NCBI GenBank assembly: GCA_025450075.1
Contig: JANWIC010000001.1
Span: 1-57,475 of the forward strand
Reading direction: 5' to 3'
DNA: 57,475 bases
DNA from: Patescibacteria group bacterium
GTDB taxonomy: Bacteria > Patescibacteriota > Dojkabacteria > JAKAPS01
Made by a program: the position numbers and the translations under genes. Position 1 is the stretch's first letter; each line of letters begins with the position of its first letter. The notes under the pieces are model-generated. The model did no database searches. It worked only from the letters and a program-made list of their open reading frames with translations, and was not told the origin of the DNA. This document shows positions 6,450 through 40,349 of the stretch, piece by piece.

Positions 6450-7511
6450 TTATTCTTTAGGTTTCTCTTTATCTCCATTACCGATATAGTCAGGCTTAAT
6501 TTCCCTAAGTAGTTCATCTCTTGTTCTTTCGAATTCTTGCCTGAATTCATCTTTGCCTTTGGAACCTTTTTCATTCAATATGTCCATCTTACTTTCCAGT
6601 GCTGCAAGCTCACCAAGCTCATGTTCAAAAAGTAGTTCAATTTCTCTTTGTCTCCTTCTTGTCATTTGGAACATTCTAATAGACATGAAAGCGACCATAA
6701 TGATGAGGATCAATAATGGAAGGATAAATAGAAGAGCAGCTGCTGCATTATTAAAATATCCCTGCACTAAAGTTGATATATCACTTTTAGCTGTTCCGCT
6801 TGGTGTAATAATAATTGTCTTAATAATGGGAGTTGGTGTTGAATTTGCTTTTGGTTGGGTGACGACAATTAATGTCGGCTGGTTAGCAGTTGTAATTGTA
6901 GGTTTAGGTGTAGGTTTTGCATTAAATGATCCGGGTGGCTGACCAGAAATTGGAGTTGTTTTTGCGGTAGGTGTAGGAGTTGGTCCATTTGAAGTTGGAG
7001 ATGCTGTTGGCGTCCCACTTGCTGAGGGTGTTGGTGTAGGAGTAGGGGTAGCAGTCCCCCCACTAGAATTAATGGTAACTGGTCCTCCTGTTGAAACTGA
7101 ATCAAAGGTTCCATGCCCGTCATTCATATATACAGTTGCACGAGAAATGCTAAAGGTTGCTGATCCGCTTAATGATACTGATATGAATCCTATGGTTCCA
7201 CTTCCACTAAACCCGTTTGTTTTTCCACATGATATCTCTACTTGTCCTCCTCCTGGAGCTGGAGTTGGTGCAGGCACATTACAAATGCCTCCAGTTGTGG
7301 TTTCGTTAATGCCATCAACTGATCCAACATATGAAACAACAATATCAAATGTGTTTTCTGAGGTTCCATTTGTATTAATATTGACATTAACCGTTGCTGA
7401 TGATCCGCTTGAAGGCGAATTGAGTGTTACAACGGCAGCAGCAAAACTCGGGTCAGCGAAAAGTATTCCCAGAAAAAAAAGACAGATTGTGATTAGGGGC
7501 AGTTTTTTCAT
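6450..7511 (-). CDS. Membrane-anchored cohesin-like surface protein
   Basis: 353 residues: signal peptide (about 1-25), one cohesin-like beta-sandwich domain (about 28-150, ending MNDGHGTFDSVSTGGPVTI), a Pro/Thr/Ser-rich linker (about 150-235), one membrane helix near 258-280 and a charged cytoplasmic tail with coiled-coil character. This is the expected build of a cell-surface anchoring scaffold: the cohesin would face outward and bind a dockerin. The dockerin gene and a second cohesin-like gene lie immediately upstream in the same operon. Cohesin assignment rests on the fold-like pattern and the context, not on strong residue identity. The linker DNA is a low-complexity ACC/CCA run, which explains the long open frame on the opposite strand. 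Confidence 0.72.
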   Translation of the reverse strand: MKKLPLITICLFFLGILFADPSFAAAVVTLNSPSSGSSATVNVNINTNGTSENTFDIVVSYVGSVDGINETTTGGICNVPAPTPAPGGGQVEISCGKTNGFSGSGTIGFISVSLSGSATFSISRATVYMNDGHGTFDSVSTGGPVTINSSGGTATPTPTPTPSASGTPTASPTSNGPTPTPTAKTTPISGQPPGSFNAKPTPKPTITTANQPTLIVVTQPKANSTPTPIIKTIIITPSGTAKSDISTLVQGYFNNAAAALLFILPLLILIIMVAFMSIRMFQMTRRRQREIELLFEHELGELAALESKMDILNEKGSKGKDEFRQEFERTRDELLREIKPDYIGNGDKEKPKE

Positions 7512-7516
7512 CAGTA

Positions 7517-8026
7517 TTATTGACTTAGTATAACCGAAATTGTCTTCTTTTCAAAGCTGTTAAGGACGTTTGTTCCTCTCCCATCATTTTTCAATATCAA
7601 GCTTTTAGGGCTTATAGCGATATCTGACTTCCCATATCCTATCGTATTAAATGTAATGGTTTCAAGTGTATTTGTTCCTGTAAATCCTGGATTTGGTTTG
7701 CCGCAATATAGCCTAACAAATCCTTTATGTGTATCGTATGTTCGATCTGTATAGAGTGTACAAAAGGAACTTTGGGTATCAACTGATGATATCGCAAGGA
7801 TATGAGGATCAAAATATATTGTAATACCTACTGCGTTAATAGCAGTTGGTGTATTTAATTGGACAGCAGCAATAACTGGTGTATTAATTCCTGTTCTTGT
7901 CGTATTTGTGGCGATTGATAATAGCTTAGTGCTATTTCCTAAAAGTGCTGGTGTATCAGGACCAGGAATGATTAAAAATACAACAAATAAAATGGCAACT
8001 AAAAATGGTATATTGTTTTGTTTCAT
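7517..8026 (-). CDS. Secreted single-domain cohesin-like protein
   Basis: 169 residues: hydrophobic signal segment (about 8-25) and then one domain resembling a cohesin, with VIAAVQLNTPTAINAVGITI and FDPHILAISSVDT typical of the strand that describes an amount of change, and an end region KNDGRGTNVL matching the end of the neighbouring cohesin-like domain. There is no C-terminal anchor, so the protein is either released or held by the uncleaved signal segment. It lies 3 bases after the dockerin gene and 5 bases before the anchored cohesin. It could act as an adaptor, but that is inference. Confidence 0.68.
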   Translation of the reverse strand: MKQNNIPFLVAILFVVFLIIPGPDTPALLGNSTKLLSIATNTTRTGINTPVIAAVQLNTPTAINAVGITIYFDPHILAISSVDTQSSFCTLYTDRTYDTHKGFVRLYCGKPNPGFTGTNTLETITFNTIGYGKSDIAISPKSLILKNDGRGTNVLNSFEKKTISVILSQ

Positions 8027-8029
8027 AGG

Positions 8030-9331
8030 TTAAGATCCGAAGTAGTACATCATGATACTGAAGTCAATTAAGTCCACGTTCCCATCACCATTTATATCTG
8101 CCAATGCGCTGTTAGTTCCCCAATAGTATAGCAATATACTAAAGTCAATTAGGGTAACATGTCCATCACAGTTCAGATCTCCTTTAGATATGTCACAAGA
8201 TGGTTTTGGATTTGAAGGTATGGTATTGTCAGAAAGGACTGTAAAACTTTGTGGTAGACTTTGGATGCTTTGGACACTGCCTGGAGTTTGCACTGTTGCT
8301 GTTGCCTGATAATCTCCCGGAGAATACGCATTCATTGATGCAAGAGAATAGGTGAAATTACCACTACTGTCGCTTGTCGTACTGTATTGTACTAAAGGAC
8401 TGTTGACCGAAATTGTAACACTACTGTTAGGGACTGTTTCTCCGGTAAATGTAAAAGAATCGGATTGGTGTACCTGGTTAGTATTCGTGAAGATAATAGG
8501 TGAGAGAATAAGGTTTTGGTAATTAGTATTTTGATATGGCGTCGCATAAATAGAAATGCTGCTGCTTGCCGTTACGTTATTAGTTGCATCGATTCCTTCA
8601 ACCATTATGGTATGAAATCCAGGTGTTAAACCAGTAAGAAGAACAGAAAAATATCCTGATCCATCTGGAGAAGATGTGTTAAGTACTGCACTATTTTCAG
8701 TAAATGTCAGAAAAAATCCAGGGTAAGCATACCCCGTAAGAGTAATCTGTGCGGTATATGGTTGAATATCTGCAGATACAGAAATTTTTCCATTGTAAGG
8801 TTCAGCAACTAAAGTAGCAGAATTTTTTATTATTGATTCTGCCATGTCTGTTGCAATATCAATACTTTCATTAAATTCGCTTGAGAAAGAAGGGTTTGTA
8901 GCAGTAATCCTATTAATATATATTGTTGCACCTGGTATGATAGAGAGATTTGACAGGTATATATTATTTCCGGAAATTGTTACATGAAGTCCCGTTCCAT
9001 CTCCATAAATGAAGGTACCGGTTACAAATAAATCAGCAGTAGAAATTGATTGAAAATACGGCATCTTAATTATGATGTAGTCTGACGGGTTAACAGGACT
9101 TGAATTAGCAGGTAGTGTAAATGTAATTTGATGTTCAATATTTGAAAGAGAAAGGTTATTGACCTGGATAAAATCAGACGGATTATCGAGTGAGGAAGAT
9201 GCGTATATAAGATCAATTGCCGAGAAAATTCTCGTTAAAAATACAAAAAGCAGCAGAATTTTGATAATCCTTCGTTGCATGGGCAGTAATAATCTCATGA
9301 TAATATTACTATGTATGAAGGATCCTTGCAA
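8030..9331 (-). CDS. Secreted Ig-like protein with C-terminal type I dockerin
   Basis: About 433 residues. An N-terminal hydrophobic segment (about 22-42) acts as signal peptide; several beta-sandwich regions follow, including two Ig-like repeats near 190-265 and 275-365. The last 56 residues are a dockerin: two calcium-loop repeats, GDLNCDGHVTLIDFSILLYY and DINGDGNVDLIDFSIMMYY, each with Asp at loop positions 1, 5 and 12. Dockerins bind cohesins, and two cohesin-like proteins are encoded directly downstream. No catalytic domain is visible, so this looks structural or adhesive rather than a cellulase. The start is uncertain: TTG at 9331 lies 2 bases after the previous gene with AAGGAT ahead; ATG at 9298 or 9280 also gives a signal peptide. 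Confidence 0.85.
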   Translation of the reverse strand: MQGSFIHSNIIMRLLLPMQRRIIKILLLFVFLTRIFSAIDLIYASSSLDNPSDFIQVNNLSLSNIEHQITFTLPANSSPVNPSDYIIIKMPYFQSISTADLFVTGTFIYGDGTGLHVTISGNNIYLSNLSIIPGATIYINRITATNPSFSSEFNESIDIATDMAESIIKNSATLVAEPYNGKISVSADIQPYTAQITLTGYAYPGFFLTFTENSAVLNTSSPDGSGYFSVLLTGLTPGFHTIMVEGIDATNNVTASSSISIYATPYQNTNYQNLILSPIIFTNTNQVHQSDSFTFTGETVPNSSVTISVNSPLVQYSTTSDSSGNFTYSLASMNAYSPGDYQATATVQTPGSVQSIQSLPQSFTVLSDNTIPSNPKPSCDISKGDLNCDGHVTLIDFSILLYYWGTNSALADINGDGNVDLIDFSIMMYYFGS

Positions 9332-9333
9332 AA

Positions 9334-10329
9334 TTATCCTTGAGCTATGACTTTCAAAGCTTTTGCAATACGTTTCCTTCCACTAATAACGAGAAGAATG
9401 ATGATAATCAGCGAAACAATGGCAATTGATACGCCAATTACGAGTGGCTTTGGAATTACAGTAAATGTTGTGGAAGCAAGTAATGCTTCATGCTTCTCTC
9501 CATATGTTGCAACTAAAGTAGCAGTAAACCTGCCAATTGGGTTTTTGTTTGTCCAATAAGTAACCATATTTCGAGCAGCATTTGGAAGTACATTACTTCC
9601 ATTCAGTTGAATCTCATCAACTTTTGCTCCGAACATATCGGTAATTATAATTGTTCCCGATGGTTTAATATGAGCATTTCCTGCGTTTTGTACTTTAAGG
9701 GTAAGAGGAACTGGTCCGTATTCTGAGTACCCGGGAGCGGAAAAGCCAACAATTGATGCTTTTTCTGTTACGTTCCCGGATACACGGAGCAGTACTAAAG
9801 AAACTTGACCTGCAGAAACATTTGCTGCTCCAGGAGTATTTCCTGCGCCGCTTTGTATTTGGATTGCACCATAGTGCCCTCCCGGTTCTGCATTATTTGG
9901 AACATTAATTATAAAGCTAATCGTTCCTTCTCGATGTGCTGGTATATCTACTGATGTTTGATCAGCATTAATCCAACTTGCTAAAGAAAATGAGCGTGAT
10001 GAATCTCCTTTGACTAACTGTACTTCTCCGTTATCTCCGCTTGCTTCAAAATCGGCTGCTGAAATGTTATATACTTCTTCAGAACCTGTTTCATTTCGAA
10101 TTGAAATTTTTTCACTTAAAGAATCCCCTGGGTTTGCAAAAAGTTCAAAAGTTGGTGGAACAATAGTTGTACCTCCACTACTTACCTGAGCATGCACACT
10201 ACTTGTAAGAGGGATTAGTGATACGAATAGTGAAAATGATACTAAGGCGCGAATGACAGTATGTTTTTTCACGAAGTTGAGAATGTTAATTAATGGTTTA
10301 ATTGTAGGGATTCTGGTATGAGTTGTCAA
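9334..10329 (-). CDS. DUF916-like (WxL-interacting type) surface protein with C-terminal membrane anchor
   Basis: 331 residues: signal peptide (about 22-48), an Ig-like domain that begins VPPTFELFANPGDS and contains PGGHYGAI near residue 145, a second beta domain (about 195-290) and a C-terminal membrane helix (about 296-315) with a basic tail. This order matches DUF916 proteins, which in Firmicutes partner WxL cell-wall proteins. The divergent gene at 10431 encodes a secreted beta protein that could be the partner. It is the first gene of the cohesin/dockerin operon. The proposed start is TTG at 10329; no nearby ATG precedes the signal peptide. Confidence 0.75.
   Translation of the reverse strand: MTTHTRIPTIKPLINILNFVKKHTVIRALVSFSLFVSLIPLTSSVHAQVSSGGTTIVPPTFELFANPGDSLSEKISIRNETGSEEVYNISAADFEASGDNGEVQLVKGDSSRSFSLASWINADQTSVDIPAHREGTISFIINVPNNAEPGGHYGAIQIQSGAGNTPGAANVSAGQVSLVLLRVSGNVTEKASIVGFSAPGYSEYGPVPLTLKVQNAGNAHIKPSGTIIITDMFGAKVDEIQLNGSNVLPNAARNMVTYWTNKNPIGRFTATLVATYGEKHEALLASTTFTVIPKPLVIGVSIAIVSLIIIILLVISGRKRIAKALKVIAQG

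Positions 10330-30988: not shown

Positions 30989-30992
<4 letters not shown>
30051..30992 (+). CDS. Glycosyltransferase family 2 protein
   Basis: 313 residues from ATG 30051; upstream in-frame starts fall in or before the promoter. GT-A fold signs: VGITAYNEGKNISRIL at the N-terminus, SSGSIDDTNNIV, KGKASAVNIFID, and LESADTIPDKNTIERM in the place of the DXD motif. The usual DxD is not exact here (ESAD). A C-terminal hydrophobic region near 250-290 may touch the membrane. Sugar and acceptor are unknown. The 3' end overlaps the ATPase epsilon gene by 4 bases. Confidence 0.88.
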
Positions 30993-33615
<2,623 letters not shown>

Positions 33616-33619
<4 letters not shown>

Positions 33620-35472
33620 ACATTTATTACTTTGATATTTGGTTCTTCTTCAGGTATGTTATTTATGACCTCCCCAAGTTCAGTAATAGGTGGTTCTTTG
33701 TGTACTTTAATCTGAACTTTTTCTTCCTCACGAGGAGTTGGAGGTGCAATTTTTTCTGTTGAGATCGGGGTAACAGGAGTATTGGTGCTTGCTTCAAGCG
33801 ATGGCGATGATGGATTCTGAGGTGCTACTACACCAACTGGGACACCAGATCTCTTAGTATTCAAATCAACTGGAGTTTGTATTCCTTCTTTATTAAGTTC
33901 CTTTTTCTCCTGCTTGTCAATTTCTTGTTTAGTTTCAGTTGCTGCAAGAGATTGTAAGAAGTCAGGAGTGAATATTTTATCTAATTCATCGTTTACATCA
34001 TCAAATCCCACATCAGGAGAACCAATTTTATCTCTCAATTCTTTATATGCATCAGTACGTAATAACTTGAGAAGTTCTTTTTTAATCTTTTTCAAGTCGT
34101 TTAATTCTATATCATCAGTTTTTCCTTGTGTTACGATGAAAAGGAAAACAATTTCCTCTTCAAGAGAGTAGGATACTGCGCTTAGTTGGTTACAGATCTC
34201 AAGCATTCGTTTTCCTCTTTTAATTTCTCTTTCAGTTTCTTCTGTAATTTCTGTATTAATATTCTCATAAGATTTCACTTCGTTATATCTTTGCAGTTGT
34301 GATGCTGCAACCTCACTTAACTTTCTAAGAAGTTTAGTTTGGACACTTCCTCCAATACGAGATACTGAGGTTCCTGAATCAACAGCAGGAAAGATGCCAG
34401 CATGCATAAGATGTGAATCAACATAAATATGTCCGTCAGTAATGCTCATGAGGTTTGTCGTGATGTATTCTGATACATCACCTGATTGAGTTTCTGCAAG
34501 TGGAAATGCTGTTAAAGATCCTCCTCCAAATTCTTTTGAAAGACGTGCGCTTCTCTCTAGAAGTCTTGAATGCAAAAAGAAAATGTCTCCTGGATACGCA
34601 TCTCGACCAGGGGAACGTTTTAACAATAGCGACATTTGACGGTATGATTTTGCTTGTTTTGAAAGATCATCATAAATTATGAGGGCATTTTTTCCCTGCT
34701 TCATAAAATATTCACCTATGGAGCAACCTGCATATGGCGCTATGTAGTTAAGAGAGGGTGGATCATCAGCTGTTGCAAGAACAACTGTGGTATATTCCAT
34801 AGCTCCTGATGCTTCCAAACTTTCAATGATACCTTTCACTTTTGCTTTTTTCCCACCGATACTGACATATATACAAGCAATATCTTTTCCTTTTTGGTTA
34901 TTAATAATGTTTGTCATGAGAGTCGTTTTCCCCGTTTTCCTATCTCCTATGACAAGTTCTCGCTGTCCTCTTCCGACAGGAATGATTGAATCAATGACAA
35001 GTACTCCAGTCCTGATTTGTTCTTTAATTTGTTCACGAGCATTCACCGGTGGAGCAGGTACTTCAATTGGAGCAGATTTGTGAGGCCCCAGTTCTCCCTT
35101 ACCGTCAAGAGGTTTGCCGATTGGATTAATGACTCGTCCTAATACGCCTTCTCCAACAGGTACTGTTACGCGTTTCCTTGATGATTTTACAATGTCTCCT
35201 TTTGAGATTTTCGTAAAATCACCTAATACGACCGATTCTACAAGATCTTGGTTAATACCAAGGATAAGGGCATTAACTTCTTCACCTTTTGCTTCAATTT
35301 TTATCATGTCGTCAATCCTTGCATTTGACAGCCCTTTTATTTTGCAAATTCCATCTCCGATATATACGACTTCACCAATCTCAATGACATGAGGAACAAT
35401 TTTTGTATCTTGAGGGATAGAAGCCTCTAAATAGCTGGTAACTTTATTTTCCGATTCCTTTTTTGGTTTCAT
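33616..35472 (-). CDS. atpA: F-type ATPase alpha subunit with unusual C-terminal extension
   Basis: 618 residues against about 500-515 normally. The core is standard: P-loop GDRKTGKT (176-183; Lys replaces the usual Gln), the SIGGKKAKV region, and VSRIGGSVQTK with the arginine finger. After about residue 515 comes an extra 100 residues rich in Pro, Thr, Glu, Lys and Asn (TPVDLNTKRSGVPVG, PVTPISTEK, ITELGEVINNIPEEEP). This tail looks disordered and has no counterpart in typical alpha subunits. It would project near the top or side of the F1 head. It lies 8 bases after atpH. Confidence 0.96.
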
Positions 35473-35480
35473 GGCAGTAC

Positions 35481-36008
35481 TTAATTTGTCTTGCTCATTG
35501 CTTTTTTCGTCCTCTTTAATGACTTAATCCATTCATTTTCGTAGGATTTCAGATGGTTTCTTAATGAAGCATCAAAGATATACTTGTCTTCTTTAATCAC
35601 AATACCACCGATAAGCCCTGGATCAATTTTGATATTTAGAATGACTTTTTTATTTAGTTTCTTTTCAATTTTATCTGCAAGTTCTTTAATATCTGGTTCT
35701 GTTAAGGGAATTGCAATTGATACATTTACCATCTTGTATGTATTTGTCATATCCTGTATTTTATTCACCAGTACTTTTAATTCTTTTGAACTAAATGCCC
35801 CTAAGTTATCATTTGCTTGGATAAGCAGTATTTCTTTCAACATGGGATTCGTTGCTTCGCTTGCAATAACTTCAAGTACTTTGTCTTTTGTCACTTTTCT
35901 AATCCCTTCAAGTTTACCAAGTATATGTTCAAGATTTAAAAGCACCTGCTCAAGTGTTGATTTCTTATATATTGCCGATGAAATTGTTTTATATAGGCTT
36001 TGTTCCAT
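35481..36008 (-). CDS. atpH: F-type ATPase delta subunit
   Basis: 175 residues, normal length. The N-terminal helical domain and the C-terminal motif IDPGLIGGIVIKEDKYIFD followed by ASLRNHL identify delta (OSCP). It joins the peripheral stalk b to the top of F1, so a stator appears to be made. It lies 2 bases after atpF and 8 before atpA. Confidence 0.92.
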   Translation of the reverse strand: MEQSLYKTISSAIYKKSTLEQVLLNLEHILGKLEGIRKVTKDKVLEVIASEATNPMLKEILLIQANDNLGAFSSKELKVLVNKIQDMTNTYKMVNVSIAIPLTEPDIKELADKIEKKLNKKVILNIKIDPGLIGGIVIKEDKYIFDASLRNHLKSYENEWIKSLKRTKKAMSKTN

Positions 36009-36010
36009 AT

Positions 36011-36520
36011 TTATTCTTCAAATCTCATCTCATCCAGAGATTTTTCAATTATCTCTTTGTGATCGTTATATGATAAGGTCTTTTCAAATATTTTTTGTGT
36101 TACATTCATGACAAGAGATACCATATTTTTTTCAACTTCTTCTCTTTGTTCTTTTTCAAATTCTTTAATGCGCTCAGAAGCCTCTGATCTCATGGTATCT
36201 TCTAAAGTTTGCAGTTCCTGCATTTTCTTATTCATATCCTCCTGCATCTTGTTTAGCTTGATATCACATTCATTATTGATTTTTTGACTTTCTTCCTCAG
36301 CTTTTTTTGCTTGTGTTAGTGCCTCATCCATTTTTTGTTTTGCCTCATTTGCCATTTGTTCACTTTCCTTTGCTCTTTCGTCATATGTTTTTTTTATAAT
36401 TTCGATTTGTTCTTTTATTTTTCCCTCATCTTCTTTTTCTTTGCGGAAAGCTATAAAGAAAAAAAGCATCAGGCCAAGTATGAGGACATTTAATGGTATA
36501 AGGGCGTAACTTAATATCAT
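36011..36520 (-). CDS. atpF: F-type ATPase b subunit
   Basis: 169 residues: one N-terminal membrane helix (about 5-26) followed by a long charged coiled coil with many Glu/Lys residues and a C-terminal segment contacting delta. This is the standard stator stalk. In a normal enzyme b also grips the a subunit, which is not encoded in this cluster. It lies 15 bases after the c-like gene. Confidence 0.92.
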   Translation of the reverse strand: MILSYALIPLNVLILGLMLFFFIAFRKEKEDEGKIKEQIEIIKKTYDERAKESEQMANEAKQKMDEALTQAKKAEEESQKINNECDIKLNKMQEDMNKKMQELQTLEDTMRSEASERIKEFEKEQREEVEKNMVSLVMNVTQKIFEKTLSYNDHKEIIEKSLDEMRFEE

Positions 36521-36535
36521 AGTAGGACGAATAAA

Positions 36536-38641
36536 TTATTTAATGAGTACAGCGGATGCAATAGATAATATAGCAATTCCTAAACATAATACCAAGCTTA
36601 TTGAAAGCGCAACTTGAATTTTTGTTCTTGCAAACGGATTTCTTCCAATTGCTTCAAGCCCTCGAGCTGACATGAATCCAATACTTACAGATGAACCTAG
36701 AAGACCGAGCCCGGCAGCAATTCCTGCAGCAAGAACTTTAGCACTGTTTGATGAATTTTGTGTTGCATTCACGATTACCTGTTTTAAACCGCTTCCTAAA
36801 TTTTGTAATGGATTTGGAGTTTCTTTTCCATTGACATCAAATTCATTACTTGTTCCTGATAATCCAAGTCCATGGATTGTTATGATATCTTTTTGCATCG
36901 GTTTACTAATTGTTACATTTCCTGTCCAAACACCGTTTGTAAATGTATCTCCTGTGGATGGGGAGATTGTTGTTGTTCCGTCAGCTAAAGAAATTGGTCC
37001 CGCGAATGTTCCTAAAATATTATTGTTATTATCCTCCGCAGTAACTACCACTACAAATGGGACTCCCAATAGCTGTGGACTTGGAATTGTCCTGATAAGT
37101 AAATGGCCACCACCGATATTGGTATTTAATATTTTTTGATTAAGAGGAACTGCCTGGATGATTACTTGTGCTTGTGCTTGGACACTTCCTGATTGGTCTG
37201 TTGCTACAGCAGTTATCGATGCATTTCCTGGAGTTGTTCCTGCATTAATGCTTGTTGAAGAGCCATAGCTTTGTGCAAGAGTACCTGCGCCTGCCGATAG
37301 TTGCCAACTTATTTGTGTATCAGTAATTGGGGTATTTGAAGCATCATATGCTTGTGCATTTACTATGACACTTCCACCAGCTGCAACTACAGCTGGATTA
37401 GGGTTAATACTTACGTGATCGATCTTAAGGTTAGATAAGGGTTGATATGGTCCAGTTGGAGTAGGAGAAGCCGTTGAAAGTGGTTGATATGGTCCACCTG
37501 TAGTGAGAGGAGATGGAATAGGGGTAGGGGTTGGTGTTGAACCTCCACCGCTACTACTTCCGCCAGAGCTTCCGCTGCTTCCTGATCCCGGATTATTGTT
37601 ATCACTAATATTTTCGTTAATAACGGTGATGGATGCTACTGCTCCAACGCTTCCCACACTTACCTTTACTGTATTATTGTACACACCAGGAGTAGTCCCT
37701 GAAACAAAATTACCATTTGAATCAATAGTTCCTCCTCCATTTACAACACTCCAAGTTGGGGAAGAAAGACTTATCGGGTTACCGTATTGATCTGTTCCTG
37801 TTACGGAAAATGGCTGTGTTCCGCCTTTTGGAAGAATACTAGTTAAAGGTGAAATCTTAAGTGTAGATAAAGGTCCGCTGGTCGCATTTTCATAAAAATT
37901 TACTCCTGAGGAAATATTAGAACCACCCCCGATTGATCCGTTAATTGTATAGGTACCGATTTTGCTCCCCAGTGTCACGGAAGTCGAAGCTGTACCAGAA
38001 AAATTTGTCGTTACACTATAGTTGGAAAGTCTTTGTCCGCTTGCTCCGGGAGGATATCCCGGAATTGAAAAATTGACACCAATATTGGGAATCGGGTTAC
38101 CGTATTGATCAATTGCTTTTACTGTTAAACCTTGTGAAAGAGTCGTTATGACTTGTCCAGTTTGAGCTGATCCTCCGATTAATGATAGAAAATCCTGGTT
38201 ACCGGGATTAACAACAAAAGACGGAGATATTCCGTTAGTAAATGGCGAGTTATATGCAGTAATCGTATCAGGATAAGCAGTTCGGGTAATAGTAACTGTT
38301 CCATTCCATACACCATTTGAAAAATTATTAGTACGTGATGGAGACATTGTATTTGTCGCATCAGAAAGATTAATCACCCCATTAAAGGAAGTATCAACCT
38401 GAGATGAACTATTACATTTGTATAATGTAACGGAAAAAGGAGTTCCAGCATTGATTGGGTTATTTACAAACGATGTGTCAAATACGACAGTATTTGTTAA
38501 TCCTTGGCATTGTGTGCTTTGTGCATACACAATACCTGCAACAAGCAGGAAAATAGAAGCGAAAGGAGCAAGTATAGCACTGAAAATACTTAACACCATC
38601 GCCTTTCGGAAATATTTCATTTTAATAGGCAGTTGTGTCAT
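36536..38641 (-). CDS. ATPase c-subunit hairpin fused to a large Ig-like ectodomain; ion-binding acid missing
   Basis: 701 residues. A signal peptide (about 15-41) is followed by a beta-rich region: domain 1 (about 42-145), a second domain with DQYGNPIPNIGVNFSIPGYP, a Big-like domain starting LSTLKISPL, a Gly/Ser/Pro/Thr linker with two GPYQPLS repeats, another Big-like domain starting LSNLKIDHV, and a last domain similar to domain 1. The final 68 residues (634-701) are a c-subunit: Gly-rich helix 1 (AAGIAAGLGLLGSSVSIG), polar loop GRNP (666-669), helix 2 KIQVALSISLVLCLG. The Glu/Asp of helix 2 aligns with Leu687 (codon at 36581-36583). c-subunit N-termini lie outside the cytoplasm, so topology is consistent. 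It occupies the atpE position of the operon. Confidence 0.9.
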   Translation of the reverse strand: MTQLPIKMKYFRKAMVLSIFSAILAPFASIFLLVAGIVYAQSTQCQGLTNTVVFDTSFVNNPINAGTPFSVTLYKCNSSSQVDTSFNGVINLSDATNTMSPSRTNNFSNGVWNGTVTITRTAYPDTITAYNSPFTNGISPSFVVNPGNQDFLSLIGGSAQTGQVITTLSQGLTVKAIDQYGNPIPNIGVNFSIPGYPPGASGQRLSNYSVTTNFSGTASTSVTLGSKIGTYTINGSIGGGSNISSGVNFYENATSGPLSTLKISPLTSILPKGGTQPFSVTGTDQYGNPISLSSPTWSVVNGGGTIDSNGNFVSGTTPGVYNNTVKVSVGSVGAVASITVINENISDNNNPGSGSSGSSGGSSSGGGSTPTPTPIPSPLTTGGPYQPLSTASPTPTGPYQPLSNLKIDHVSINPNPAVVAAGGSVIVNAQAYDASNTPITDTQISWQLSAGAGTLAQSYGSSTSINAGTTPGNASITAVATDQSGSVQAQAQVIIQAVPLNQKILNTNIGGGHLLIRTIPSPQLLGVPFVVVVTAEDNNNNILGTFAGPISLADGTTTISPSTGDTFTNGVWTGNVTISKPMQKDIITIHGLGLSGTSNEFDVNGKETPNPLQNLGSGLKQVIVNATQNSSNSAKVLAAGIAAGLGLLGSSVSIGFMSARGLEAIGRNPFARTKIQVALSISLVLCLGIAILSIASAVLIK

Positions 38642-39281: not shown

Positions 39282-40349
39282 CTAGTCAATACTCAATGAC
39301 TTCACTACTGAAGTAAATGCATTTTCAATAACTTGTGTATGTAATTTTGTATTGGATGGATCAGTTGTAAGACACATTCGTGTTTGCATATTGTTAATCT
39401 GTGTATCCTTTGGAGCAAATGGCCATTTGTCCAATGGGTACAGTATGAGATATTTCAGATCTTGAGATTTAGGATTTAGGAAGCAAACCGTATTATCTGT
39501 ATAGGTAACCTGGACATATGGTGTGTCATTAAGTGTTATGAGAACTGCTTTTTTAATCGGATAAGATAACATATTCCCGCATTTATTCATGTCAATTGTA
39601 ATAACATTCCCTCCATTTTTAAGATTTATAAGGCTTTCCGGATTATTATTGCAATTTGTTGTATTTTGCAAAAGCAAATCAGATATGAAATCAGATGGGT
39701 AGGTTAGTGTATATAACTGTGTTTGGATGATCTTTGGAGTTACCGGATAGTCCGGTGTTTTTGAAGAGAATACAATGGAATTTAATATATTTCTGAAGTA
39801 GAAATAGTGGACATTATTTCCGCTAAATTCAAATACTCCATCCTCATTTCCAAGGTCAACTGTTGCATTTTCATTTGTGACCGTGCCGGTGAGTATGTCC
39901 GAATAATTTGTGTTAAATCCGCCTACCTGAATTGTCATTATCTTTACTTTCTTATACATACTTGCAGGATAGATAATTATTAAGTATCCGCTTGTATTTT
40001 GGAATTTACTCACCCCATCTTTATCATAAATCTGCATAAAATCAGGAGGTAAGGACATTTGAAAACTATGGTAATGCAAATCAATAGTGAATTGGTTCCA
40101 TGAACTTTCATCTGGTGGTAATGGTGTTATTTCCGCGCTTGCTTTGTAAGTTAATGGTGTATCAGTAGGGGTAATAGCAGGGCCAGTATAGTCACGGCGG
40201 GAATCATTTAATCCAAGGATATAGCCACCTAAAAATATGAGAGAAACAATTAAAAGAAGTGATGCAAGGAGGAACAGTACATTATAATAGCTGACTTTAT
40301 TGATAAGTGCGAACAAGAAAGGTTTCTTTGCAGCTGACTTCTTTTTCAA
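39282..40349 (-). CDS. Bitopic membrane protein of unknown function
   Basis: 355 residues, starting at TTG 40349 (LKKKSAAKKPF read as MKKK). A basic N-terminus, one membrane helix (about 22-47) and a large extracytoplasmic part rich in beta structure. The extracytoplasmic part includes WNQFTIDLHYHSFQMSLPPD and YTLTYPSDFISD, two segments that resemble each other and the strand seen in the PsbP-like protein at 13731, so it may hold two such domains. Four cysteines lie in the C-terminal half. Promoter at 40372-40401. No catalytic motif recognised. Confidence 0.7.
   Translation of the reverse strand: MKKKSAAKKPFLFALINKVSYYNVLFLLASLLLIVSLIFLGGYILGLNDSRRDYTGPAITPTDTPLTYKASAEITPLPPDESSWNQFTIDLHYHSFQMSLPPDFMQIYDKDGVSKFQNTSGYLIIIYPASMYKKVKIMTIQVGGFNTNYSDILTGTVTNENATVDLGNEDGVFEFSGNNVHYFYFRNILNSIVFSSKTPDYPVTPKIIQTQLYTLTYPSDFISDLLLQNTTNCNNNPESLINLKNGGNVITIDMNKCGNMLSYPIKKAVLITLNDTPYVQVTYTDNTVCFLNPKSQDLKYLILYPLDKWPFAPKDTQINNMQTRMCLTTDPSNTKLHTQVIENAFTSVVKSLSID

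What the first reader, a model, noticed from the sequence alone, without database searches (positions are those of the whole stretch)
36536..38641. ATPase c-subunit carrying a 600-residue secreted Ig-like ectodomain
Seen: one uninterrupted frame joins a signal peptide, about five beta-sandwich domains and, in the last 68 residues, a c-subunit hairpin with the Gly-rich helix and a GRNP polar loop, in the atpE place of an F-type operon. Known: c subunits are normally 70-100 residues and form rings of about 8-17 copies with both termini outside the cytoplasm. Inference: each ring would carry a crown of many large surface domains driven by the motor. I know of no described F-ATPase with this design.
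Basis: partly seen in the sequence, partly recalled or inferred. Interest (0 to 1): 0.96.

Follow-up and report, generated by a model that had tools for sequence, protein, structure and literature searches.

The report
Non-pumping F-ATPase with surface-domain c-subunits
This tiny bacterium carries, beside its normal ATP synthase, a second ATP-burning rotary motor whose membrane-ring subunits have lost the proton-carrying residue and instead carry large domains outside the cell, and relatives of this motor occur across much of the same bacterial phylum, apparently undescribed.

Summary
One 701-aa frame joins a signal peptide, Ig-like/beta domains and a C-terminal ATP-synthase-c hairpin at the head of an F1 operon. 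A relative of another genus has the same fusion, 48% identical, in the same operon, so it is not an assembly artefact.

The reading needs changing. This is not the cell's ATP synthase: a normal a-c-b-delta-alpha-gamma-beta-epsilon operon lies on another contig. The fused hairpin lacks the ion-binding carboxylate (Glu to Leu), the operon has no subunit a, and epsilon is only its N-terminal domain. F1 catalytic residues are intact.

It is one branch of a phylum-wide system. I collected 67 secreted proteins ending in a c-like hairpin (65 with a different, phage-appendage-like ectodomain). All lack the carboxylate; 51 of 56 genomes have an F1 operon on the same locus; alpha+beta trees put all these F1s on one side of a branch (99%). 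In 24 genomes the system occurs without any subunit a or recognised canonical c.

Best reading: an ATP-driven, non-ion-pumping F1 motor that turns or strains a c-derived membrane rotor bearing cell-surface domains. Nearest known: mycoplasma F1-like ATPases. Rotation and purpose are inferred.

The parts
36536..38641 (-). Fused secreted-ectodomain/c-like subunit (701 aa)
   Evidence: ortholog L113:7695-9716 (48% identity)
38522..38641 (-). Signal peptide, residues 1-40, AxA-type end VYA|QS
   Evidence: Sequence reading; N-terminal helix in the low-confidence model
37895..38128 (-). Bacterial Ig-like domain (Big_1), residues 172-249
   Evidence: Pfam PF02369, 44.5 bits
37436..37612 (-). Low-complexity Gly/Ser/Pro/Thr linker, residues about 344-402, between beta domains
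   Evidence: Sequence reading; variable in the relative
36542..36733 (-). c-subunit hairpin, residues 637-700, with EAIGRNP loop
   Evidence: PF00137; hhalign prob 98% to canonical c; PDB c subunits E 9e-8
36581..36583 (-). Codon of Leu687, the position of the ion-binding Glu of canonical c (Pro of the loop + 18)
   Evidence: Alignment with canonical c subunits; Ile in the relative; non-acidic in all 67 family members
36011..36520 (-). Stator subunit b-like (one TM + coiled coil), 169 aa
   Evidence: NCBIfam F0F1 subunit B, E 5.9e-5, below curated cut-off; no Pfam subunit-b hit
35481..36008 (-). Subunit delta (OSCP), 175 aa
   Evidence: PF00213 E 1e-15
33616..35472 (-). Subunit alpha, 618 aa, with about 110 extra C-terminal Pro-rich residues; Arg finger kept
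   Evidence: PF00006 E 6e-75
32660..33619 (-). Subunit gamma, 319 aa
   Evidence: PF00231 E 8e-40
31257..32666 (-). Subunit beta, 469 aa, all catalytic residues kept
   Evidence: PF00006 E 3e-68
30989..31270 (-). Short epsilon, 93 aa, N-terminal beta-sandwich only (no C-terminal helices)
   Evidence: PF02823 only; 82-110 aa in 53 operons of this kind versus 124-150 aa in 12 canonical operons
39282..40349 (-). Upstream gene for a 355-aa protein with one N-terminal TM, conserved at the same place in the relative; candidate partner
   Evidence: Homolog L113:6672-7649; no family match

Best explanation
This is a second, non-ion-pumping F-type motor. F1 (alpha, beta, gamma, short epsilon) hydrolyses ATP in the cytoplasm and is held by a b-delta stalk. 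Gamma/epsilon grip the conserved GRNP loop of a c-derived rotor in the membrane. With no carboxylate and no subunit a, ATP energy is not spent on ion transport; it turns or strains the rotor and so moves the domains fused to its outward-facing N-termini at the cell surface. In this family the load is a stack of Ig-like domains; in the rest of the phylum it is a small phage-appendage-like barrel, which in one checked genome also occurs twice in a giant surface protein encoded next to the operon. Shown: gene content, homology, loss of the carboxylate, absence of a, conserved F1 catalytic residues, phylum-wide linkage. Inferred: ring assembly, rotation, and the task (probably moving or loading surface adhesins or fibres for attachment to other cells).
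For: Hairpin is c-like: canonical-c HMM hits 54/65 hairpins at E<1e-3, against 1/390 reversed or shuffled controls; top PDB hits are c subunits; pLDDT 91.6; c subunits at rmsd 1.0-1.7 A. No acidic residue at the ion site in 67/67. No subunit a in the window operon; the only a in this genome is in the normal operon; 0/24 genomes that have the system without canonical c have a, 6/6 genomes with canonical c do. Catalytic residues kept in 53/53 beta and 52/52 alpha. Short epsilon. Conserved order ecto-c, b, delta, alpha, gamma, beta, epsilon. All these F1s on one side of a branch, SH-aLRT 99. Same fusion in a second genus.
Against: No multimer prediction, no expression, localisation or activity data. 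The glycine packing motif of helix 1 is only partly kept (SxSxG in the window protein, weaker elsewhere), so a ring is not certain. The partner that anchors b in place of subunit a is not identified. The hairpins of the wider family are far from canonical c and fall below Pfam's threshold.
Confidence: 0.66

Rival explanations
1. The rotor does not spin. ATP hydrolysis by F1 causes a strain or conformational change passed through the c-like hairpins to the surface domains (opening, release or reset of bound partners), as proposed for the mycoplasma MIB-MIP ATPase.
For: That model is published for a similar architecture (PMC12994834); reduced Gly packing motif in helix 1 may mean no tight ring.
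Against: Gamma, b and delta, the rotary shaft and the anti-rotation stalk, are kept; such a stalk makes most sense if torque is produced.
Confidence: 0.17
2. The F1 drives assembly, export or length control of surface fibres or secreted proteins; the ecto-c is a cap or export base.
For: Giant MerR-TM-fibre-like proteins are neighbours in 18 loci, and one of the two read in full has two copies of the ecto-c ectodomain; secreted proteins lie in the f2 operons.
Against: No export channel or chaperone in the operon; ecto-c itself carries a normal signal peptide; no such giant neighbour found at the window's locus.
Confidence: 0.09
3. It still moves ions: other residues bind the ion, or the fused hairpins join a mixed ring with the normal c subunits and the normal subunit a, giving a decorated ATP synthase.
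For: The fused hairpin is the family's closest to normal c (hhalign 98%), and both operons are in one cell.
Against: Carboxylate absent in 67/67; 24 genomes with the system have no a and no recognised canonical c, four of them on one contig; own complete F1 set with its own gamma, b and delta.
Confidence: 0.06
4. A decayed or artefactual locus: misassembly, or a degenerating duplicate operon.
For: The window comes from a draft genome of 25 contigs.
Against: Same fusion and operon in another genus at 48% identity; catalytic residues invariant; system kept in about 60 of 380 genomes.
Confidence: 0.02

Closest known systems
Mycoplasma Type 2 (G1, gliding; MMOB1610-1670) and Type 3 (F1-like X0; MMCAP2_0575-0581, MIB-MIP) F1-like ATPases (PMC3369863, PMC12994834)
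   Same: F1 core in small host-dependent bacteria beside a normal ATP synthase; no a; a protein with signal peptide, ectodomain and two C-terminal TM helices; ATP hydrolysis coupled to work at the cell surface.
   Different: Mycoplasma clusters lack b and delta and have a 12-TM and a small cytoplasmic protein; their 2-TM tail is not described as a c subunit. Here b and delta are kept and the tail is clearly c-derived. Window alpha/beta score far below the MMOB and MSC model cut-offs.
Canonical F1Fo ATP synthase (PF00137/PF00119 type)
   Same: alpha, beta, gamma, delta, epsilon, b and the c hairpin are homologous; gene order as in atp operons.
   Different: No a, no carboxylate, short epsilon, ectodomain of up to 600 aa on c.
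N-ATPase (alternate F1F0, TIGR03305/TIGR03324)
   Same: A second F-type operon next to a normal one.
   Different: N-ATPases have a and an ion-binding c and pump ions (established knowledge); window alpha 491 bits against a cut-off of 750, beta 515 against 752.
Phage preneck appendage (phi29 gp12) and capsid cement proteins
   Same: The ectodomain of the phylum-wide ecto-c has this barrel fold.
   Different: There it is a virion part; here it is fused to a c hairpin. The window's own ectodomain is Ig-like instead.

Membership tests
ATP synthase subunit c (PF00137) | Two-helix hairpin with (R/K)NP polar loop, over curated cut-off | tested here: met
   26.7 bits against 24 for the window protein; wider family by hhalign 95.8% and HMM, but below Pfam's threshold
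ATP synthase subunit c (PF00137) | Ion-binding carboxylate in helix 2 | tested here: not met
   Leu687 in the window; 0/67 acidic at that position
Ion-translocating F1Fo ATP synthase | Subunit a with its complex | tested here: not met
   None in the operon; absent from 24/24 genomes that have this system without canonical c
Ion-translocating F1Fo ATP synthase | Catalytic F1 (Walker A Lys/Thr, Glu181, Arg finger) | tested here: met
   53/53 beta, 52/52 alpha
Ion-translocating F1Fo ATP synthase | Pumps ions or makes ATP | not testable with these tools
   Needs biochemistry
Mycoplasma F1-like X0 / G1 ATPase | alpha/beta over the MMOB1660/1670 or MSC_0618/0619 model cut-offs | tested here: not met
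   alpha 365/600 and 260/520; beta 445/850 and 437/570 bits
Mycoplasma F1-like X0 / G1 ATPase | 12-TM protein in the cluster; no b, no delta | tested here: not met
   b and delta present, no 12-TM gene in the operon
N-ATPase | alpha/beta over TIGR03324/TIGR03305 cut-offs | tested here: not met
   491/750 and 515/752 bits
c-ring rotor | Hairpins oligomerise into a ring bound to gamma/epsilon | not testable with these tools
   Only a monomer could be predicted; its hairpin superposes on c-ring protomers

The most novel reading that the evidence does not exclude
A phylum-wide rotary machine of host-dependent ultrasmall bacteria in which an F1 motor spins a crown of adhesin-like domains, or giant phage-fibre-like proteins docked on them, at the cell surface: an ATP-driven surface rotor, neither a flagellum nor an ATP synthase, used for attachment, gliding or handling of partner cells.
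Probability: 0.4. Interest if true: 0.97.

Novelty: new variant of a known kind. Interest (0 to 1): 0.93.

Why it matters
It shows a rotary ATPase re-purposed on the scale of a phylum: an F1 motor kept intact while the ion-translocating machinery was lost and the ring subunit was turned into a surface protein. It has a practical consequence: surveys count F1 genes in these bacteria as ATP synthase, or read missing a/c genes as loss or genome incompleteness (PMC8672522, PMC10656485, PMC11738941). In 24 of the genomes examined here the F1 found is of this a-less type and no canonical a or c was found, so bioenergetic inferences for such lineages need revision. It also gives a testable precedent for what the unexplained two-TM surface protein of the mycoplasma F1-like ATPases might be.

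Tried and rejected
Assembly artefact: rejected by the relative in another genus. 'It is the cell's ATP synthase': rejected by the normal operon on C16. Mixed ring with normal c/a: unlikely. Recent duplicate of the own canonical F1: not supported; the window pair falls with the other ecto-c-linked F1s, not with its own canonical F1 (beta alone only 79% support). AlphaFold2 of the full fused chain with two sequences was uninformative. PF00137 alone missed the wider family; the lead came from second gamma genes without a second c gene in the sister family. Omnitrophota F1 operons with short epsilon were checked as possible kin; their c keeps its Glu. Literature searches found no description of this design; only open-licence PMC papers were searchable.

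Full report
WHAT IS IN THE SEQUENCE. The ORF at 36536-38641 (-) is 701 codons without interruption. It begins with a signal peptide (about residues 1-40, end VYA|QS, my reading), continues with beta-rich sequence in which Pfam finds Big_1 (residues 172-249, 44.5 bits), has a Gly/Ser/Pro/Thr linker near 344-402, and ends with an ATP-synt_C hairpin (637-700, 26.7 bits, cut-off 24). NCBIfam points the same way, below its cut-offs, and a profile of this hairpin and its ortholog finds only ATP synthase c subunits among all PDB chains (13 at E <= 0.01, best 9e-8). Downstream on the same strand follow b (NCBIfam E 5.9e-5), delta, alpha, gamma, beta and a 93-aa epsilon.

IT IS NOT THE ATP SYNTHASE OF THE CELL. 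The same genome (1.11 Mb, 93.5% complete) has a normal operon on contig C16 with a, a 68-aa c, b, delta, alpha, gamma, beta and a 143-aa epsilon. The only subunit a found in the genome is in that operon. Against the normal c, the fused hairpin keeps the EAIGRNP loop but has Leu687 where the ion-binding Glu should be (hhalign 98%). The alpha and beta of the window operon are 40% and 52% identical to the normal ones and keep the catalytic residues; epsilon has only its N-terminal domain; alpha has about 110 extra C-terminal residues.

IT IS CONSERVED. G001, same family but another genus, has both operons too. Its fused protein is 673 aa, 48% identical over the whole length, with Ile in place of the Glu, followed by b-delta-alpha-gamma-beta after an inserted AAA_14/DUF4143 ATPase gene. 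The gene upstream of the fusion (window 39282-40349) is conserved there as well. This rules out an assembly artefact.

THE WIDER SYSTEM. In the sister family five genomes have a second, divergent gamma but no second Pfam-detectable c. Their loci hold the same a-less F1 operon, and in the four read in full it is flanked by two secreted proteins of 250-273 aa, each ending in a two-helix hairpin with an RNP loop. A profile of these (A5) found full-length relatives in about 60 of 380 sampled genomes of the phylum (my count). I read loci from 56 genomes: 67 such proteins in all, the two fusions included. 54 have alpha, beta or gamma genes within 4 kb, and 51 of 56 genomes have both on the same locus; most exceptions are contig ends, second copies, or operons a little further away. 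Typical order: ecto-c, b, delta, alpha, gamma, beta, epsilon. Epsilon is 82-110 aa in 53 of these operons against 124-150 aa in 12 canonical ones.

THE HAIRPINS ARE c SUBUNITS WITHOUT THE ION SITE. Profile comparison of 65 ecto-c hairpins with 29 canonical c gives 95.8% probability over 73 columns, and 97.5% with the fused pair; a canonical-c HMM hits 54/65 at E<1e-3 against 1/390 reversed or segment-shuffled controls. The full ecto-c profile against the PDB returns ATP synthase c subunits as the best seven hits (E 0.0003-0.01). AlphaFold2 on a 64-sequence alignment gave pLDDT 91.6: signal helix, beta barrel 34-160, long hairpin 185-257. Foldseek matches the hairpin to c-ring protomers (TM-score to target up to 0.90, rmsd 1.0 A) and the ectodomain to phage capsid-cement and phi29 gp12 proteins, in viral models to preneck appendage barrels. 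At the position of the carboxylate (loop Pro + 18) no member of 67 has Asp or Glu (Ile 19, Leu 16, Phe 11, Val 10, others 11); the canonical ones have Glu. Pfam finds PF00137 in none of the 64, which probably explains why the family is unannotated. The ectodomain HMM does not match the window's own ectodomain significantly, so the load differs between branches.

NO SUBUNIT A, ACTIVE F1. 24 genomes with ecto-c and no PF00137 match also lack PF00119, four of them on one contig; six genomes with a canonical c all have subunit a. Catalytic residues of beta (K155, T156, E181, R182, E185, D242, R246 in E. coli numbering) are kept in 53/53 and the alpha Arg finger in 52/52. Concatenated alpha+beta puts all 27 sampled ecto-c-linked F1s on one side of a branch, SH-aLRT 99, with the window pair nearest the canonical side; beta alone agrees with 79. 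The tree is not rooted and holds no mycoplasma homologs.

HOW IT PROBABLY WORKS. Shown: F1 with intact catalytic residues, gamma shaft, b-delta stalk, c-derived hairpin with the loop that gamma/epsilon bind in canonical enzymes, no ion path, secreted N-terminal domain. Inferred: the hairpins form a ring or rotor; ATP hydrolysis turns or strains it; the output is mechanical work on the surface domains. The loss of epsilon's C-terminal domain, an inhibitory element in many bacterial F1s (established knowledge), fits a hydrolysing machine. [quoted passage not shown] the two I read in full are 4,397 and 4,474 aa, and the first contains two copies of the ecto-c barrel (E 9e-34 and 1e-30). In the sister family, WxL-interacting-protein-like and other secreted proteins lie in the operon. 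Attachment or motion on partner cells is my guess, not a result.

COMPARISON. The nearest known systems are the mycoplasma Type 2 and Type 3 F1-like ATPases: no a or c described, a protein with signal peptide, ectodomain and two C-terminal TM helices, and a shown need for the beta Walker-A Lys in surface function for Type 3 (PMC12994834). They differ in lacking b and delta and in having a 12-TM protein; the window alpha and beta score far below their model cut-offs, as they do for N-ATPase models. I therefore do not file this as a member of either; it may work like them. Surveys describe F-type genes in CPR as ATP synthase or explain missing subunits by loss or incompleteness; I found no mention of this design.

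LIMITS. The stator partner of b is unknown. Ring stoichiometry is unknown.

Noticed in passing
L226:126-13319 (+) and L227:399-13823 (+): Giant proteins of about 4,400 aa next to ecto-c F1 operons: N-terminal MerR-like HTH, one TM helix, huge ectodomain; the L227 C-terminal part looks like a phage-fibre intramolecular chaperone (by eye). L226 has two copies of the ecto-c ectodomain. Related neighbours in 18 loci.
   Followed up: partly
window 6450-10329: A cluster of secreted proteins with a WxL-interacting-protein-like gene (9334-10329, PF06030 E 1.1e-5, just below cut-off), homologous to a gene inside the sister family's ecto-c operon.
   Followed up: partly
L113:9971-11218: An AAA_14/DUF4143 ATPase gene is inserted between the fused c gene and b in the relative G001.
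   Followed up: no
L086:6728-11630, L087, L088: Omnitrophota F1 operons with unusual gene order (short epsilon, 70-aa c, long delta-like, alpha, gamma, beta) and no a recognised nearby; c keeps its Glu.
   Followed up: partly
L128-L131: Sister-family loci carry two different ecto-c genes flanking one F1 operon, plus WxL-like surface proteins and a protein with a weak Big_1 match and several TM helices just upstream of b that could anchor the stator.
   Followed up: partly
G029:C4:196926-197345, G040:C43:787-1206 and others: c-type proteins of about 160 aa with two PF00137 repeats in several genomes; probably V/A-type K subunits.
   Followed up: no
window 33616-33950 (alpha C-terminus): About 110-residue proline/glutamate-rich extension of alpha absent from canonical alpha.
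   Followed up: no
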